Shown piece by piece: positions 4,264 to 21,705 of a stretch of DNA of 64,000 nucleotides. The stretch's first letter is position 1, and every line of letters begins with the position of its first letter. The notes beneath the pieces were generated by a model, which worked only from the letters and a program-made list of their open reading frames with translations, was not told the origin of the DNA and ran no database searches. Source of the stretch: Ponticaulis koreensis DSM 19734 (GTDB lineage: Bacteria; Pseudomonadota; Alphaproteobacteria; Caulobacterales; Hyphomonadaceae); the NCBI RefSeq assembly GCF_000420665.1, contig NZ_ATVJ01000001.1, positions 1,364,001 through 1,428,000 of the forward strand. Direction: 5' to 3'. The translations under genes were made by a program, and so were the position numbers.

Positions 4264-6312
4264 TCAGAAATTATACCGCACTCTGAAACGGACCTGACGT
4301 GGCTCTACGGGTTTGAAGTGGATATCCTCGACCGGATTGGCTGCACCCTGAAACTGGCTTTCGTAGAAATAGCTGATGTCATTATCCTCCGCGTCGAGGG
4401 CATTAAGAACCTCAAGACCGAAGTCTACGTTTTCCCATGTGTAGCTGGCGCCCAGGTTCAGAACAGTGGTCGGGTCTGTTGTGACCGAGCCATCTTCGAT
4501 CAGCGGGGCTTTGCCCAGATAGCGTAGACGCGCGGTGAATACCCATGGATCGAAATCGAGGTGCATTCCGGCGCCGACAACGCTTTCAACGGCATTTGGA
4601 ATGGCGGTATCAGGGCCAGCCACATTGAACTCCGCATCCGTGAAGGCCGCACTCGCATCAAGTGTCAGCCAGTCATTCGGGCGCCAGAAGCTGGTCAGCT
4701 CAACGCCGGTGCGTGTGGTGGCGTCATTGATTTCAGTCGTGCCTGCATCGCCGACAAAGATCAGTTCAGAGTCGAGTTCCAGCGTGAACAGGGCGGCTGA
4801 CAGGTTGAAGTCGCCGCGTTCGAAACGTGCACCCAGCTCATAGCCTTCGCCTTCAGAGAAGAGCGGGGCCTGAGTGGCGGGCTGGCCGCTCGCCGGATCT
4901 GTCTGGATCACGGTGCCGCGAATGTCATTGGTGTGGAAGCCGCGGCCATAGCTCGCATAAAGCTCAACATGGTCGCTCGCGCGCCATGCCAGGGATGCGT
5001 TAGGCGTCACCAGCGTATCATCGATTGAGCCGGAGTTTTGGGGCACGATATCGGCGGTGACTTCACCATCATAATAGTCTGCGCGAAGGCCGAATGAGCC
5101 ACGCAGCGTTGGTGTGAAATGGTATTCGGCCTCACCCCATACGCCGAGGCTGAATTCCTCTACCGAGCCGCGATTGACCGTTTGCAACACAGTCGGGCCT
5201 GCCGTGAGTTCCAGGCCAACATCCGAGACATCGTCATAGCGCAGTTGTGCGCCCGTATGAATCTCTAGGCGGTCGCTCAATTCCCTTTCATGTCGGATGG
5301 AGCCGCCCATAATTGTGCGCTCGTCAAACTGGTGGAACTCATCACCATTTACCGGATCGGCAAGGAAATAGGTGAAGTTGGACGTGAGGCTGAAAGAGGA
5401 GTCGACATAGAAGGCCGAAATCTCGGTGGACGCGCCATCGCCGTGATCGAAGCCGAGCTGGCCGGACAGGCTATAGCGTGAGACATCTCCGCCCAGATCA
5501 TCATCGAGAGACCCGAACCGGCTAATCGTGCCGTTGCTTACGAGTCGTTGCGGGATCTGCTCGCTGGAGACCCAGTTATTGTCATATGCCGTTGCGGTGA
5601 GCGTGTAATTCCACGTGCCAAAGTCGCCGGAAAGGCGCGCAAGGCCACTGATCTTGTCGACCTCCTGAGCGTTTTCCCACGGGCCGTCATAGTTCTGGAA
5701 TTCACCGGCGATGAGGAGGGTGGTTGTTTCTGACAATGGCGTTGAATAGCCGCCTACCGTGCGCAGATACCCGTCTTCACCAATTTTCAGTTCGACGAAG
5801 TTCTCAGCGAGTTCGGAATAGAGCGTGTATGTGCCCGCGCCCGCTACGGAGAAGTCGCCTGTATCTGCGAAATAGGGCCCTTTCTGATAGTCGACCCGTT
5901 CCACGAGTTCCGGAATAATCGGGTTCAGGTCGAGATAGCCCTGACCATGCCCGTGCGAGCGCATGGAAAGCGGCACGCCATCCACAACGGCTGAGAAGTC
6001 CGAGCCATGATCAAGGTTGAAACCGCGCAGGAAAAATTGGTTCGCTTTGCCTTCTCCGGAGTGCTGGGTGGCGATGACGCCGGGAATGACTTCAACGAGC
6101 TCACCAGCGCGGGAAAGAGGGCGGTCCTCGAAATCAGCATAGCCGACAACGCCCTGTGAAGCGGCCTGCGCTTCGCCAATCAGCGCAAGGCCTCGGCCGT
6201 GAACCTCTACCGTGGAGAGGCGGTTTTCTTCGTCTGTGACATCTGCGGTTTGAGCATAGGCCGAAACAGAGGTGAGGCCAGCCAGCAGCGCTATGGCGCT
6301 TGTTCGTATCAT
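4264..6312 (-). CDS. TonB-dependent outer membrane receptor
   Basis: Outer-membrane beta-barrel importer energised by TonB, about 682 residues from the ATG at 6312. That start gives a clean signal peptide (MIRTSAIALLAGLTSVSAYA) and has GGAAG just upstream; a further in-frame ATG at 6381 would put 23 charged residues before it. After the signal come a probable TonB box (STVEVHGRG) and a plug domain (RAGELVEVIPGVIATQHSG, FFLRGFNLDHGSDF, ERVDYQKGPYF), then a long barrel ending RFRVRYNF with a terminal Phe. The plug has a His-containing loop (SMRSHGHGQG). Substrate is unknown; a metal or metal chelate would fit the His loop, but that is a guess. A perfect palindrome lies upstream. Confidence 0.9.
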   Translation of the reverse strand: MIRTSAIALLAGLTSVSAYAQTADVTDEENRLSTVEVHGRGLALIGEAQAASQGVVGYADFEDRPLSRAGELVEVIPGVIATQHSGEGKANQFFLRGFNLDHGSDFSAVVDGVPLSMRSHGHGQGYLDLNPIIPELVERVDYQKGPYFADTGDFSVAGAGTYTLYSELAENFVELKIGEDGYLRTVGGYSTPLSETTTLLIAGEFQNYDGPWENAQEVDKISGLARLSGDFGTWNYTLTATAYDNNWVSSEQIPQRLVSNGTISRFGSLDDDLGGDVSRYSLSGQLGFDHGDGASTEISAFYVDSSFSLTSNFTYFLADPVNGDEFHQFDERTIMGGSIRHERELSDRLEIHTGAQLRYDDVSDVGLELTAGPTVLQTVNRGSVEEFSLGVWGEAEYHFTPTLRGSFGLRADYYDGEVTADIVPQNSGSIDDTLVTPNASLAWRASDHVELYASYGRGFHTNDIRGTVIQTDPASGQPATQAPLFSEGEGYELGARFERGDFNLSAALFTLELDSELIFVGDAGTTEINDATTRTGVELTSFWRPNDWLTLDASAAFTDAEFNVAGPDTAIPNAVESVVGAGMHLDFDPWVFTARLRYLGKAPLIEDGSVTTDPTTVLNLGASYTWENVDFGLEVLNALDAEDNDISYFYESQFQGAANPVEDIHFKPVEPRQVRFRVRYNF

Positions 6313-13987: not shown

Positions 13988-14071
13988 GGCTCACAGACCG
14001 CGACCGCGGTCCGGGCGATAGCCCGCCCCGCCTTAGACGCCGCGCGTCGTGAGGCATAAAGAAATTGCTGC

Positions 14072-14290
14072 CTGCGCCTTCGCGTTGCTCGTAATGTTCC
14101 GCTCATTCCCGCGAAGGCGGGAAACTGGACCGGCCATGTCGCACCAGATCCCTGCCTGCGCAGGGATAAACGAAAATCCCTCAACACCGCAGATGCCCGC
14201 GAAGGCGGGTATTCAGACTGAGATCGACCACTTCAAAATGCCGCGAGATTTAAGCATGGGTTCCCGTCTTCACGGGAACCGGCGGGCTGC
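14072..14290. repeat. hairpin-rich dispersed repeat, copy 1
   Basis: A 219-base element matching 16360-16578 without any length change (constant offset of 2288). The first 141 bases differ at about 6 positions. The next 36 bases (14213-14248) are unrelated. The last about 42 bases match again. It contains successive short hairpins: TTCCCGCGAAGGCGGGAA, ATCCCTGCCTGCGCAGGGAT, a CCCGCGAAGGCGGG unit and GGTTCCCG...CGGGAACC. This is the style of alphaproteobacterial REP-like intergenic repeats. Open reading frames crossing it are not considered genes. Confidence 0.85.
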
Positions 14291-14372
14291 GGACGGTTAC
14301 CATACTGGTAAATTCGCTGCGCTTAATGCACCCTGTCGCGCAGCGGAGTTTCGCCGATCACGGATATTGACG

Positions 14373-14705
14373 ATGAAAATAAAATTCCAACCTAGAGACT
14401 TCGGAGCATGGCTCGACATGATTGATGTGAATTGCTTGACTGCAACTGATGCTAACTATCTCGCAGAGTTTGATATTGAGGATGATGGCGCTCTCAAAGC
14501 GATGATCGGCGGATGGATGAAGGCTCGTTTTGAGGAATACGATGCTCAGAATCGTGCAGAAATGCGCGCACTTCTGGAACAGTCGAAACAATGGACTACC
14601 GAGCAATTAACGCCGGTATTCGCGGAAGTGGGCATTCCATCTGGACAAACGGTAAAAGATATCGACCGCTTCATGGCCGAGTTAAGGTATCAGATTCTAA
14701 CATAG
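14373..14705 (+). CDS. hypothetical small protein
   Basis: A 110-residue protein, MKIKFQPRDFGAWLDMID at the start, acidic and helical in appearance, without signal peptide or membrane segment. The frame stays open upstream to 14049, but that part runs through the repeat, so the ATG at 14373 is chosen. No good ribosome site precedes it. Base composition is visibly AT-richer than hslO. It lies in the same patch as a SUKH gene, so it may be part of a small toxin/immunity-type cargo, but no family is recognised. The segment CLTATDANYLAEFDIEDDG could hold a compact domain. Confidence 0.55.
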   Translation: MKIKFQPRDFGAWLDMIDVNCLTATDANYLAEFDIEDDGALKAMIGGWMKARFEEYDAQNRAEMRALLEQSKQWTTEQLTPVFAEVGIPSGQTVKDIDRFMAELRYQILT

Positions 14706-15670: not shown

Positions 15671-16252
15671 ATGAACCCCGCGTCATCATCTGCCCCTGAT
15701 TATACGTCTCTGACCATTGGTCAGCTGATCGGGCTGAACCTTGCGCGGCTTTACGCCTGGTGCCTGCGGCTTCAGGCGTCCGGCGAAACATGCGTGTCGC
15801 GTGATCTCGCTCGAATGGTGATCTCGACCGACGCTATGGTGCATGCCTATGTGCGCATGCTGGCCTCGAACCAGCTAAAGCAGGCCGGTTTCACCTTCGC
15901 CGCCAACGCCATGCGTACGCCCGTCTGGCAACGGACTGACAGTTTTGTTTGCTCTCATGAAGAAGAGGTTCACATAGAGCCCGCTCAGGGTTGTGATTTC
16001 ATCTCAATGGCCGAGCTGTCTGACCGACTTCAGACCGCAATAGAAAACTTTGAACGCGCAGAAATACTGGCGAGCCATCTGGCTCGTGTGATTGTCTGCG
16101 CGCTGGTGTATCTTGAACCTGCAGAACGCACATCCCTTGAGTTTGATCGGATTGTAGAACCGGCATTCCGGGGTTCCCGTCACATTGCTTCAACTCAAGA
16201 ACCGTGGCCGCCACCAGACCGTGCGGCGTCTATCGTTTCACTCGCAATCTGA
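15671..16252 (+). CDS. hypothetical protein
   Basis: A 193-residue protein of unknown function. It is mostly helical, with LTIGQLIGLNLARLYAWCLRLQAS near the start and AELSDRLQTAIENFERAEILASHLARVIVCALVYLEP in the middle; there is no signal peptide. The C-terminus is Pro/Arg-rich. Codon use resembles the chromosome more than the SUKH patch does. The gap before it (15557-15670) has no feature. The segment with TDSFVCSHEEEVHIEP suggests a structured core, but no family is recognised. Confidence 0.6.
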   Translation: MNPASSSAPDYTSLTIGQLIGLNLARLYAWCLRLQASGETCVSRDLARMVISTDAMVHAYVRMLASNQLKQAGFTFAANAMRTPVWQRTDSFVCSHEEEVHIEPAQGCDFISMAELSDRLQTAIENFERAEILASHLARVIVCALVYLEPAERTSLEFDRIVEPAFRGSRHIASTQEPWPPPDRAASIVSLAI

Positions 16253-16359
16253 CTTCATCTTCAAATCAAAACTTATGCGCTGCAGGGAATCCCTTGCGGC
16301 GATATAGGTGTATGTTTTTTGTTTGCTCGCCTTCGTGGTTCGCCATGGGCTCACCCCGG

Positions 16360-16578
16360 CTGCGCCTTCGCGTTGCTCGTAGTGTTCCGCTCATTCCCGC
16401 GAAGGCGGGAAACTGGCCCAGCCATGTCGCACCAGATCCCTGCCTGCGCAGGGATGAGCGAAAATCCCTCAACACCGCAGATACCCGCGAAGGCGGGTAT
16501 CCCTGCTTAGATTGTCCGGTACTGCACGCCGTCAAATTTAAGCATAGGTTCCCGCCTTCGCGGGAACCTTCGGGCTGC
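16360..16578. repeat. hairpin-rich dispersed repeat, copy 2
   Basis: Second copy of the element at 14072-14290, same orientation and exactly the same length, with a divergent 36-base internal segment (16501-16536). Hairpin units TTCCCGCGAAGGCGGGAA, ATCCCTGCCTGCGCAGGGAT, ATACCCGCGAAGGCGGGTAT and GGTTCCCGCCTTCGCGGGAACC are near-perfect palindromes. It fills most of the noncoding stretch 16253-16692; nothing else is recognised there. Confidence 0.85.
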
Positions 16579-16692
16579 ATGACCGAGTTTCCAATTGAGG
16601 GAGGCAGCATGTAGATCGGTCCAGCCCTCAGCGGAGCCGGACAACGCCTTGATCGCAAAGTCGGGTCCACTTTGCTTGGCACGCCTGCGAAG

Positions 16693-17553
16693 TTAATTCG
16701 TCCTGAGAGAAAGCTCGTTTGCGAGAAAATACTCAAAGCTTCCTTCGTCAAAAAAGACCAAGCTCTCGGCTTCGCACACCGGATCACCCGTGTCGCGATG
16801 AAAGACATTCGTAAACTCGCTGAGTACTAAGTCTTCGCTGGTATCAATGACCCTGAACCGGGAAACGAGATAATCATCGTCTATGGCGATGTCTCTTTCG
16901 AAGTAATAAGGCAGAAAGTCTTGCGTTTCCTCGATTGAGCGAAGCTCTACCAAAGAGAGGTCAAAAGCGATCCCTGCCTTTTCGAAAACTGCTTCAAGCG
17001 CCTGATCGACCTGATTTAAGGTTCGCGTCCGATAGCCCGCTTCGTATCCGCCCGTGGCGCTGTCGTCCCTGTAATCGGAATCCTCGAATAGCGATGCGTC
17101 TGCGAGCGACACCTCTGCTGACGAGGATGGCGTTAGCTCCAACAAGTATTTTGTGACGTGGGCGTAACAGGGATCAAATTGGGTGAAGTTGTGGGCCATG
17201 CCAGCGCGTTCACTTCGCGCATCACACGGATTTGGCAATTCCAGATAAAACGGAATCTCGCCGGATCTGGACGACAAATCGTAAACCGCCAAAATGTTAC
17301 GTTCAGAGACTTCGGGGAAATCGAATATGTCGCCGCCGCCCAATCGTACTGGGCCTACAAACTCAGCCAACCGAACTGAATCGTCGGCGATTGATGAAAT
17401 GAAACGGGTCACCTCGTTATTCATCTGCACAGCAAGGGCACGGCAGTGGATGGTTTCGATAGCATCGCGTGGCCGTGCGTCCGCTATGCCCGTAGCACAG
17501 TATCCGGTAATGACGGCGCCCAGTAGAAGTTGTCGTGCTTTCTTTAAGCTCAT
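16693..17553 (-). CDS. exported hypothetical protein
   Basis: A 286-residue protein with an N-terminal signal (MSLKKARQLLLGAVITGYCATGIADA) and a good ribosome site (AGGAG 6 bases before the ATG). The mature protein is acidic with four or five Cys (CRALAVQ, NPCDARSE, DPCYAHV, DPVCEAE). The sequence FTQFDPCYAHVTKYLLEL and the C-terminal FEYFLANELSLR give no family match. It is probably periplasmic or anchored. It follows the DadA-like gene on the same strand by 28 bases and could be co-transcribed with it. Confidence 0.65.
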   Translation of the reverse strand: MSLKKARQLLLGAVITGYCATGIADARPRDAIETIHCRALAVQMNNEVTRFISSIADDSVRLAEFVGPVRLGGGDIFDFPEVSERNILAVYDLSSRSGEIPFYLELPNPCDARSERAGMAHNFTQFDPCYAHVTKYLLELTPSSSAEVSLADASLFEDSDYRDDSATGGYEAGYRTRTLNQVDQALEAVFEKAGIAFDLSLVELRSIEETQDFLPYYFERDIAIDDDYLVSRFRVIDTSEDLVLSEFTNVFHRDTGDPVCEAESLVFFDEGSFEYFLANELSLRTN

Positions 17554-18817: not shown

Positions 18818-18932
18818 ATCGTGGAGAGATCATCCCTGTCTGGGTGTGGAGCCCTGCTTCTAACCTGATGCATTGAGAGAGCGCAATGCGAGCAATATGT
18901 CGCTGTCAGAAACAGTCTTGAAATGACAATTT

Positions 18933-18947
18933 GTTCCTGTATTGTTC
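18933..18947 (+). promoter_or_regulatory. LexA (SOS) box of alphaproteobacterial type
   Basis: GTTCCTGTATTGTTC is an exact GTTC-N7-GTTC, the LexA-binding motif established for alphaproteobacteria. It ends 5 bases before the ATG of the radical-SAM gene. Binding there would block transcription or initiation of the DNA-repair pair downstream. Confidence 0.75.
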
Positions 18948-18952
18948 TCTGC

Positions 18953-20215
18953 ATGTCGAAGGCAGTTTCCCGATCAAAAACGACGTTTCAGAAGCTCGCC
19001 ATATTGGCGGACGCTGCCAAGTATGATGCCTCCTGCGCGTCGTCTGGCAGCACAAAACGCAATTCAATGTCCGGTAAGGGTGTCGGATCAAGCGAGGGCA
19101 TGGGGATTTGCCATGCCTACACGCCTGATGGGCGCTGTATTTCGCTTCTCAAGGTGCTTCTGACCAACTTCTGCACATTTGACTGTCGGTATTGTGTGAA
19201 CCGTGTCTCTTCGAATGTGGAGCGTGCGCGGTTTGAAACGCATGAGCTGGCGAAGCTGACGCTGGATTTCTACAAGCGCAATTACATTGAAGGCCTCTTC
19301 CTCTCTTCGGGGATTATCCGCTCACCGGATTACACGATGGAGCAGATCGTAGAGGTGGCCCGCGTGCTGCGTGAGGAGCATGACTTTCGCGGCTATATCC
19401 ATCTGAAAACCATCCCTGAAGCCGATCCGGAGCTGATCAGGCTGGCGGGGGCGTATGCTGACCGGCTGTCCATCAATATCGAGCTGCCGACAGAGCCGGG
19501 GCTGAAAACGCTGGCGCCTGAAAAGTCGGGGCAGGTGATCCGCTCGGCCATGGCGCATGTCAAATACGGCATTGATGATAGGGCGGATGCGATGAAGTCC
19601 CGCATCATCAAGAAGGCAAAACCAAAAGCGTTTGCGCCGGCCGGCCAGTCCACCCAGATGATTGTCGGCGCCGATGATGCGCGCGACAGCGATATCATCG
19701 TCACCTCGCGCAAGCTCTATGCGGGTTATGGTCTGCGGCGGGTCTATTACTCAGCGTTCAGCCCGATCCCGGATGCCTCGTCCAGCCTACCGCCGCTTGC
19801 CCCGCCTTTGCTGCGTGAGCACCGGCTTTATCAGGCTGACTGGATGATGCGGTTTTACGGCTATGACACCGAAGATGTGATCTCGGCGACTGATGGCGGC
19901 ATGCTGGATCTGGATGTCGACCCGAAGCTTTCATGGGCGCTCAAACATCGCGCCTGGTTTCCGGTGGATGTGAACCGTGCGCCGAAAGAGCATTTGTTGC
20001 GTGTGCCGGGTCTCGGCCCGAAATCGGTCATGAAGATTTTGTCGTCGCGGCGGCATGGCTCCATCGGGATGGCTGATCTGGCGCGTATGCGGGTCTCGCT
20101 ATCCAAGGTGCGGCCCTTCATAACCGCACGGGACTGGTCTCCGGGCGGTCTGACCGACACGGATAATCTCAAAGCGCGCTTTGTGAAGCCGCCAGAACAG
20201 CTGTCTTTGTTCTGA
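18953..20215 (+). CDS. putative DNA modification/repair radical SAM protein
   Basis: A 420-residue radical-SAM enzyme whose gene is regularly linked to UdgX-type genes. The [4Fe-4S] motif CxxxCxxC is CTFDCRYC (Cys 74, 78, 81). The family start KLAILADAAKYDASCASSG and the segment GMGICHAYTPDGRCISLLKVLLTN are present. A C-terminal helix-hairpin-helix (HLLRVPGLGPKSVMKILSSRR) suggests DNA contact. The ATG at 18953 is chosen over one at 18923 because the family similarity begins at once after it and the LexA box would otherwise be coding. Its TGA shares one base with the ATG of the next gene, so the two are translationally coupled. The chemical reaction is unknown. Confidence 0.88.
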   Translation: MSKAVSRSKTTFQKLAILADAAKYDASCASSGSTKRNSMSGKGVGSSEGMGICHAYTPDGRCISLLKVLLTNFCTFDCRYCVNRVSSNVERARFETHELAKLTLDFYKRNYIEGLFLSSGIIRSPDYTMEQIVEVARVLREEHDFRGYIHLKTIPEADPELIRLAGAYADRLSINIELPTEPGLKTLAPEKSGQVIRSAMAHVKYGIDDRADAMKSRIIKKAKPKAFAPAGQSTQMIVGADDARDSDIIVTSRKLYAGYGLRRVYYSAFSPIPDASSSLPPLAPPLLREHRLYQADWMMRFYGYDTEDVISATDGGMLDLDVDPKLSWALKHRAWFPVDVNRAPKEHLLRVPGLGPKSVMKILSSRRHGSIGMADLARMRVSLSKVRPFITARDWSPGGLTDTDNLKARFVKPPEQLSLF

Positions 20216-21705
20216 TGCAGACGGTTATTCTCGCGCACGAAACAGATTTCGACGGCTGGCGCGCCGAGGCGAGGCGGCTCTGCGGGCAGGGTGTGGCTCC
20301 TGAGATGATCTCATGGCAAGTGGAAGGCAAGGGCGGTGATCTCTTTGCTGGCGTCAGCGAGGCAGGCCCGGCGCGAGGGCCGGTGCGCGAGATTTCAGTG
20401 CCGAAATCATTTCCGGGCATTGCGCGCGCTGTGATCTGCCATCGCGATGAAGAGCGCTTTGACCGGCTCTACCGGATTTTATGGCGGCTGCAGACCGAGA
20501 AAAATCTTATCGAACGCAAGGCAGACCCTGATATTGTGTGGCTGCGATCACGCGAGAAGGCCATCCGCCGCGACGTTCATAAAATGCATGCCTTTGTGCG
20601 GTTTCGCAAAGCCGGTGACGCGCCGGATGGGCGCGAGAATTTCGTCTCATGGTTTGAGCCGACACACCGGATCGAGGAGATTGGAACGCCATTCTTCAAA
20701 CGTCGCTTTGCGAATATGAACTGGGCAATCGTCACGCCGGAGAAGACGGCGCGCTGGGATGGTAAAACCTTGAGCTTCGGGCCAGGCGGGTCAAAACGCG
20801 ATGTGCCGTCTGAAGACGTGATGGAAGAAGGCTGGAAGACGTATTTCGCGTCTATCTTTAATCCAGCGCGGGTGAAAATCTCTGCCATGACATCGGAGAT
20901 GCCGAAGAAATACTGGAAGAATTTGCCAGAGGCAGAACTGATACCCGAACTCCTCGAACAGGCCGAGACACGTGCGCGCCAGATGGTTGAGGAGAGCATT
21001 ACTGAGGCAAATCGGCTCGCCGATGTGGTGGCAAACCGCCGCGAGGCTCTGCCGCAAAACATCGAGATCAAATCGCTTGAAGAATTGAAGTCAGCCGCTT
21101 CGACCTGTGAACGGTGCCCGCTTTATTGCGATGCCAGCCAAGTGGTGATGGGCGAGGGGCCATCAGGTGCGCGGCTGATGATTGTCGGCGAACAGCCGGG
21201 CGATCAGGAAGATATTGCGGGCAGGCCGTTTGTCGGCCCGGCGGGGCAGCTCCTGAATGAGGCGCTTCTTAAATCAGGGATAGACCGGCGCCGCGCTTAT
21301 GTGACTAATGCTGTTAAGCATTTTAAATTCAAGACACGCGGTAAGCGCCGCATCCACCAGTCGCCAACCGTGCGCGAGATTGATGTATGCGGGCAATGGC
21401 TGAGCGAAGAGCGCCGCCTTGTACAGCCAGATGTAATCATCGCGCTTGGGGCAAGCGCAGCGCGCGGTATTCTGGGCCACAGCGTAACGTTGAAAGACTG
21501 GCGCGGTGAAATCCACAAACTCACAGACGGCACAAAGCTCGTCGTGACGGTGCATCCATCCTATCTATTACGATTGCCGGATGCGCAGCGTGCAGAGGCT
21601 GAACGGCGATTGTTTGTTTCCGAACTGGCGCTGGCTGCAACTGCTCTACAGCCTGCGAAACCGGTTGAAAAACTCACCCATCAGGCGGAATTAACTTTTG
21701 ACTAA
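20215..21705 (+). CDS. UdgX family uracil-DNA glycosylase fused to DUF4130-type partner domain
   Basis: A 496-residue fusion. Residues 1 to about 260 match the radical-SAM-linked DNA metabolism domain (DUF4130 type; LYRILWRLQTEKNLIERKADP, HKMHAFVRFRK, FAKRR-like region). Residues about 285-490 are a uracil-DNA glycosylase: GEQPGDQED at 325-333, RPFVGPAGQLLNEAL, and HPSYLLR from about H447. The UdgX-specific insert KRRIH is present at 377-381; in mycobacterial UdgX the His of this motif becomes covalently linked to the abasic sugar after uracil release, trapping the protein on DNA. A Cys cluster (CERCPLYC plus a later Cys) should bind the Fe-S cluster. It is the second gene of an SOS-box-preceded operon. 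Confidence 0.92.
   Translation: MQTVILAHETDFDGWRAEARRLCGQGVAPEMISWQVEGKGGDLFAGVSEAGPARGPVREISVPKSFPGIARAVICHRDEERFDRLYRILWRLQTEKNLIERKADPDIVWLRSREKAIRRDVHKMHAFVRFRKAGDAPDGRENFVSWFEPTHRIEEIGTPFFKRRFANMNWAIVTPEKTARWDGKTLSFGPGGSKRDVPSEDVMEEGWKTYFASIFNPARVKISAMTSEMPKKYWKNLPEAELIPELLEQAETRARQMVEESITEANRLADVVANRREALPQNIEIKSLEELKSAASTCERCPLYCDASQVVMGEGPSGARLMIVGEQPGDQEDIAGRPFVGPAGQLLNEALLKSGIDRRRAYVTNAVKHFKFKTRGKRRIHQSPTVREIDVCGQWLSEERRLVQPDVIIALGASAARGILGHSVTLKDWRGEIHKLTDGTKLVVTVHPSYLLRLPDAQRAEAERRLFVSELALAATALQPAKPVEKLTHQAELTFD

What the first reader, a model, noticed from the sequence alone, without database searches (positions are those of the whole stretch)
18933..21705. SOS box in front of a radical-SAM/UdgX operon
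An exact GTTC-N7-GTTC (18933-18947) ends 5 bases before the ATG of the radical-SAM gene, which is coupled by a one-base overlap to the UdgX gene. This predicts induction of both by DNA damage. The radical-SAM partner has no known reaction.
Basis: partly seen in the sequence, partly recalled or inferred. Interest (0 to 1): 0.72.

Follow-up and report, generated by a model that had tools for sequence, protein, structure and literature searches.

The report
SOS-controlled radical-SAM and UdgX repair operon
The DNA-damage switch in front of this repair operon is real and widely conserved, but it was already known in related bacteria; what appears new is that the radical-SAM enzyme ends in a tag expected to dock it on the DNA replication clamp.

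Summary
In detail: GTTCCTGTATTGTTC lies at 18933-18947, five bases before the ATG at 18953, and the two genes overlap by one base at 20215. By count alone the motif is at chance in this window (2 found, 1.8 expected). By conservation it is not. An exact box, on either strand, precedes 39 of 44 alphaproteobacterial copies in one survey and 76 of 76 in another. The DNA around it is random (27% identity). Betaproteobacterial and Firmicutes copies carry their own LexA box there instead. Three alphaproteobacteria without the box have no LexA over the family cut-off. The box contains the -10 element, so LexA should block RNA polymerase directly. In this genome the same box precedes lexA, dinB, uvrA/ssb, recN and comM. 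SOS control of this operon is already published for Alphaproteobacteria, Verrucomicrobia and Bacteroidetes, so the headline is confirmation. New as far as I could find: the radical-SAM protein ends in a beta-clamp-binding motif (115 of 123 copies; 2 of 1416 other ORFs), also in other phyla. A second SOS-boxed radical-SAM family (PA0069) has it too. The chemistry stays unknown; a clamp-docked, DNA-lesion-processing enzyme is my best reading.

The parts
18933..18947 (+). LexA (SOS) box GTTC-N7-GTTC, alphaproteobacterial type
   Evidence: conserved in relatives
18918..18945 (+). predicted sigma-70-type promoter TTGAAA-N16-TATTGT; the -10 element lies inside the box, predicted transcription start at or next to the ATG (leaderless)
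   Evidence: family-wide pattern
18953..20215 (+). radical-SAM protein, TIGR03916 (rSAM_link_UDG, COG4277), 420 aa, with CxxxCxxC, helix-hairpin-helix region and three further invariant Cys
   Evidence: AlphaFold model
20198..20212 (+). C-terminal beta-clamp-binding pentapeptide QLSLF (residues 416-420)
20215..21705 (+). fusion protein: DUF4130/TIGR03915 (residues 8-240) plus UdgX-type uracil-DNA glycosylase (residues 242-473) with GEQPG, KRRIH and HPSYLLR motifs; start overlaps the upstream stop by one base

Best explanation
This is a LexA-repressed, two-gene DNA-repair operon. At rest, LexA sits on the box, which contains the -10 element and reaches almost to the transcription start, so RNA polymerase is excluded. 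After DNA damage RecA filaments trigger LexA self-cleavage, and one mRNA, probably leaderless, is made; overlapping stop and start codons couple translation of the two proteins. The radical-SAM protein docks through its C-terminal QLSLF tail on the beta sliding clamp and touches DNA through its helix-hairpin-helix region. There, with the DUF4130 partner, it carries out radical chemistry on a damaged or unusual base at replication forks or gaps. The fused UdgX domain excises uracil and can stay covalently bound to the resulting abasic site. Shown by comparison: the box, its conservation, the promoter fit, the operon, the domains and the tail. Inferred: LexA binding and induction in this organism, clamp binding, the leaderless start, and covalent trapping by this UdgX. 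Not known: the substrate and the radical reaction.
For: Box exact in 39 of 44 copies and 77 of 82 loci; in 104 non-redundant promoters flanking DNA is 27% identical while the box is kept. Other LexA boxes at the same place: CTGTATATTCATACAG in Variovorax, CTGTATAAATATACAG in Caballeronia, GAACACATGTTC in Eubacterium eligens. Boxless genomes have no LexA over the cut-off and no box excess. Own regulon: box before lexA, dinB, uvrA/ssb, recN, comM/YifB and PA0069 rSAM. Promoter: -10 inside the box, TTG at 17-bp spacing in 32% of 90 promoters, start codon 2 nt after the box in 46 of 90. Clamp motif in 115 of 123 copies against 3.3 for shuffled tails and 2 of 1416 other ORFs, and in other phyla. 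UdgX domain Z 30.9 to M. smegmatis UdgX, nucleophile His381 invariant. Literature: SOS control of COG1573-COG4277 reported.
Against: No transcript, binding or interaction data for this organism. The clamp motif is short and its binding was not tested. The reaction of the radical-SAM protein is unknown, and its nearest folds (lipoyl synthase, HydE, biotin synthase) do not act on DNA. The operon is absent from most relatives (19 of 61 genomes have it), so it is dispensable. Some copies lack any recognised box (Xanthomonas, Polaromonas).
Confidence: 0.8

Rival explanations
1. The box is a chance match and the operon is controlled in another way.
For: Motif count in the window equals chance (2 against 1.78).
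Against: Conserved at the same place in over 100 diverged promoters; swapped for other LexA boxes in other clades; overlaps the -10 element.
Confidence: 0.02
2. The radical-SAM protein exists to reverse or process the covalent UdgX-DNA adduct that its partner makes.
For: Strict operon linkage and translational coupling with UdgX in Proteobacteria.
Against: Spirosoma and Eubacterium eligens copies carry radical-SAM plus TIGR03915 with no UDG domain in the partner protein, so the radical-SAM/DUF4130 pair has a job without UdgX.
Confidence: 0.12
3. The radical-SAM protein is a sulfur-inserting or methylthiolating enzyme of the lipoyl synthase/MiaB sort that modifies a nucleobase, using a second Fe-S cluster on Cys28, Cys53 and Cys62.
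For: Six Cys invariant in 125 of 125 copies, three of them outside CxxxCxxC; best structural matches are lipoyl synthases, Z 16.7, rmsd 3.1 over 214 residues, tied with HydE.
Against: The extra Cys lie in a low-confidence part of the model (pLDDT 44-67 per block); this barrel fold is common to many radical-SAM families.
Confidence: 0.2
4. The radical-SAM protein repairs a thymine photoproduct, like spore photoproduct lyase.
For: Literature groups DUF4130 with SplB-like photolyases and suggests thymine modification.
Against: A PA0069-family radical-SAM gene, also SOS-boxed, is present in the same genome and may fill that role; no spore photoproduct lyase among the listed matches, which is inconclusive.
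Confidence: 0.2

Closest known systems
SOS-controlled COG1573-COG4277 operon (Sanchez-Osuna et al. 2021, PMC8565304; cites Caulobacter and Verrucomicrobia reports)
   Same: Same gene pair, same idea of LexA control; Alphaproteobacteria named explicitly.
   Different: The passages read do not treat the radical-SAM nature of COG4277, the promoter geometry, or a clamp tail; the window's organism was not examined there. The identity COG4277 = TIGR03916 is from my own knowledge.
DUF4130/SplB-like/UDG node of the SOS network (Aravind et al. 2013, PMC3765255)
   Same: Same domains linked to SOS mutagenesis genes.
   Different: A network node only; no box survey and no clamp motif in the passages read.
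Mycobacterium smegmatis UdgX
   Same: Fold, GEQPG, KRRIH with nucleophilic His.
   Different: There a short protein of about 210 residues; here the domain is fused to DUF4130 and coupled to a radical-SAM gene.
PA0069-family (SplB-like) radical-SAM protein
   Same: SOS-boxed in 25 of 30 alphaproteobacteria and ends in a clamp motif in 23 of 30.
   Different: Different radical-SAM family, not linked to UdgX.
Clamp-bound SOS proteins such as DinB and ImuB (own knowledge)
   Same: SOS-induced and docked on the beta clamp by a short Q-L-x-L-F/L peptide.
   Different: They are polymerases or polymerase-like; this is a radical-SAM enzyme, and its binding is predicted only.

Membership tests
LexA (SOS) regulon | clade-typical LexA box overlapping the promoter | tested here: met
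LexA (SOS) regulon | box conserved upstream of orthologues and absent where LexA is absent | tested here: met
   boxless genomes
LexA (SOS) regulon | the organism has LexA that uses this motif | tested here: met
   lexA over cut-off with a box 32 bases before its start; box before dinB, uvrA/ssb, recN
LexA (SOS) regulon | damage induction dependent on recA and lexA | not testable with these tools
   needs a bench test
TIGR03916 rSAM_link_UDG | score over curated cut-off | tested here: met
   562.8 bits against 343.5
Radical-SAM superfamily | CxxxCxxC in a TIM-barrel-like core | tested here: met
   Cys74, 78, 81 invariant; PF04055; fold
UdgX | score over curated cut-off of TIGR03914 | tested here: met
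   311.6 bits against 189.95
UdgX | KRRIH loop with nucleophilic His and GEQPG motif A | tested here: met
   both present, His381 invariant in 32 of 32
UdgX | covalent bond to abasic DNA after uracil excision | not testable with these tools
   needs an assay
Beta-clamp client | Q-[LM]-x-L-[FLI] or hexapeptide form, conserved, in an exposed tail | tested here: met
   115 of 123; tail pLDDT under 50 at 417-420; other phyla
Beta-clamp client | physical binding to DnaN | not testable with these tools
   needs pull-down or crystallography
Lipoyl synthase/MiaB-like sulfur inserters | second [4Fe-4S] cluster on N-terminal Cys | tested here: inconclusive
   three extra invariant Cys, but model unreliable there

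The most novel reading that the evidence does not exclude
Two separate SOS-induced radical-SAM families (TIGR03916 and PA0069) are clients of the beta sliding clamp, forming a class of clamp-tethered radical enzymes that change or repair bases directly at stalled replication forks, with UdgX as an added uracil trap in Proteobacteria.
Probability: 0.55. Interest if true: 0.75.

Novelty: new member of a known kind. Interest (0 to 1): 0.5.

Why it matters
SOS control itself is confirmation, but it is unusually firm: the operon keeps a LexA site although the LexA motif itself changed between clades. The clamp tail gives a concrete handle on an orphan radical-SAM enzyme: it says where the enzyme probably works (at the replication clamp) and when (after damage). 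That makes an open question, what TIGR03916 does, testable by simple tail deletions and clamp pull-downs.

Tried and rejected
Motif count in the window as evidence: rejected, at chance. Upstream in-frame ATG at 18923 as the true start: rejected, it lies before the box and relatives start at the position of 18953. Box at 5800: rejected as chance, inside a gene. Literature searches for UdgX with LexA or radical SAM found nothing, because the published operon is named by COG numbers; found through. Source papers for Caulobacter (PMC2238201) and Verrucomicrobia were not held, so I rely on the citing paper; a 2025 Caulobacter paper confirms the GTTC-N7-GTTC motif but its main text does not name these genes under the terms tried. 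Radical-SAM as remover of UdgX adducts: downgraded, since the pair occurs without UDG. No solved close relative of the radical-SAM protein found by sequence. No spore photoproduct lyase among listed fold matches: inconclusive. A Foldseek search with the second protein was switched off. Viral collection: one full copy and one fragment, no sign of a phage role.

Full report
Observation. The box GTTCCTGTATTGTTC is at 18933-18947 and ends five bases before the ATG at 18953; the radical-SAM gene (18953-20215) and its partner (20215-21705) overlap by one base. By count alone the motif is not remarkable: the window has 2 exact matches and 1.78 are expected. The whole genome has 94 matches against 50 for the reversed control, so there is a real excess in this genome.

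Proteins. The first protein scores 562.8 bits on TIGR03916, 'putative DNA modification/repair radical SAM protein' (cut-off 343.5). The second is a fusion of TIGR03915 (DUF4130) and UdgX (TIGR03914), both over cut-off. The UdgX part has GEQPG and KRRIH, and its His381 is invariant in 32 of 32 copies. Its model matches M. smegmatis UdgX at Z 30.9, rmsd 1.2 over 188 residues. The published work on UdgX gives the KRRIH loop and the GEQPG motif as its marks (abstract of PMC10359453).

Conservation of the box. I scanned the stretch before the gene on both strands. In 44 alphaproteobacterial copies (the window's own copy included) 39 have an exact box, 2 have one mismatch and 3 have none. The same gene bodies hold none in 52.7 kb, and the reversed control pattern is found once. 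In a second set of 82 loci from named genomes and viral contigs, 77 are exact. The five exceptions are Xanthomonas, Polaromonas, Acidovorax, Variovorax and a viral fragment; all 76 genome loci not labelled beta- or gammaproteobacterial have the box. After removing near-identical promoters 104 remain: the box stands in flanks that are only 27% identical, so it is kept by selection and not by mere common descent of the region.

Box swapping. Where the LexA motif of the clade differs, the site differs too. Variovorax has CTGTATATTCATACAG and Acidovorax a one-mismatch version at the same position. Caballeronia has CTGTATAAATATACAG and Eubacterium eligens has GAACACATGTTC, the Betaproteobacteria and Gram-positive types (motif types from own knowledge). 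The three boxless alphaproteobacteria have no LexA over the family cut-off, only peptidase-domain matches or nothing, and no genome-wide excess of boxes.

The box in this genome. The same box precedes lexA itself, dinB, a uvrA/ssb divergent pair, recN, YifB/ComM, a PA0069 radical-SAM gene and mraZ. I picked AT-spacer boxes for this, so it is a check that the motif is the SOS motif here and not an unbiased survey.

Promoter geometry. In the window a TTGAAA-16-TATTGT promoter has its -10 element inside the box. In 90 non-redundant promoters with the box on the other strand, the spacer holds a -10-like TA in 79% of cases. TTG at 17-bp spacing is found in 32%, against 0-9% at other spacings, and the start codon is two bases after the box in 46 of 90. 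LexA on this site should exclude RNA polymerase, and the mRNA probably starts at the ATG. The box occurs in both orientations, mostly GAAC-N7-GAAC outside the window's own family.

The tail. The last residues of the radical-SAM protein are QLSLF, the consensus of bacterial beta-clamp-binding peptides (consensus from own knowledge). Gln416 is invariant in alignments whose linker varies freely. Of 123 distinct proteins 115 carry a strict form within the last 15 residues, against 3.3 on average in shuffled tails and 2 of 1416 other ORFs. Most of the rest are near-forms such as QASLF, QQDLF and QFELF. Spirosoma, Eubacterium eligens, Acinetobacter, Caballeronia and Gemmatirosa copies also carry it. 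The unrelated PA0069 radical-SAM family has a box in 25 of 30 and a strict tail in 23 of 30. I found no paper that joins radical SAM and clamp binding in the held library; that is no proof of novelty.

The enzyme. Six Cys (28, 53, 62, 74, 78, 81) are invariant in 125 of 125 copies. The last three are the radical-SAM motif; the first three could hold a second cluster, but the model is unreliable there. The core resembles lipoyl synthase and HydE (Z about 16), which says radical-SAM barrel and little more. Weak matches to ComEA and RuvA in the C-terminal part fit a helix-hairpin-helix DNA-binding region. In Spirosoma and E. eligens the partner is TIGR03915 without a UDG domain, so the radical-SAM/DUF4130 pair is the core and UdgX an addition.

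What is known. Sanchez-Osuna et al. [quoted passage not shown] Aravind et al. 2013 place DUF4130 with radical-SAM and UDG genes in the SOS network. NCBI already names both products. The additions here are the depth of the conservation, the promoter geometry, the box swap in Betaproteobacteria and Firmicutes, and the clamp tail.

Verdict. SOS control: about 0.97 likely. Clamp docking: about 0.8. Action on DNA lesions at forks: about 0.6. The exact reaction is open.

Noticed in passing
L035 (G000:C1:2003157-2006157): A second SOS-boxed radical-SAM gene (PA0069 family) in the same genome ends in QMSFGF, a clamp-type tail; its relatives share box and tail.
   Followed up: yes
window 18953-20215, residues 28, 53, 62: Three invariant Cys outside the radical-SAM motif may bind a second Fe-S cluster.
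   Followed up: partly
L042 (G000:C3:237382-240382): A GTTC-N7-GTTC box lies 96 bases before mraZ, usually the first gene of the division/cell-wall cluster.
   Followed up: no
L030, L034, L041: AT-spacer boxes lie near small genes not identified here (125, 290 and 192 aa); possible further SOS genes.
   Followed up: no
L165, L166: Spirosoma and Eubacterium eligens carry the radical-SAM gene with TIGR03915 but without a UDG domain in that protein.
   Followed up: partly
window 21680-21705: The UdgX protein of this genome ends in HQAELTFD, a possible second clamp-type peptide (QAELTF), absent from the other aligned relatives.
   Followed up: no
H51, H52 (Acinetobacter phage MD-2021a records): Two 240-kb records labelled as phage carry the radical-SAM gene; real phage cargo or mislabelled host DNA was not settled.
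   Followed up: no
window 14049-14705 and 16204-16808: Spurious ORFs translate to PAKAGIQ/FPAFAGM-like peptides, typical of dispersed intergenic repeats.
   Followed up: no
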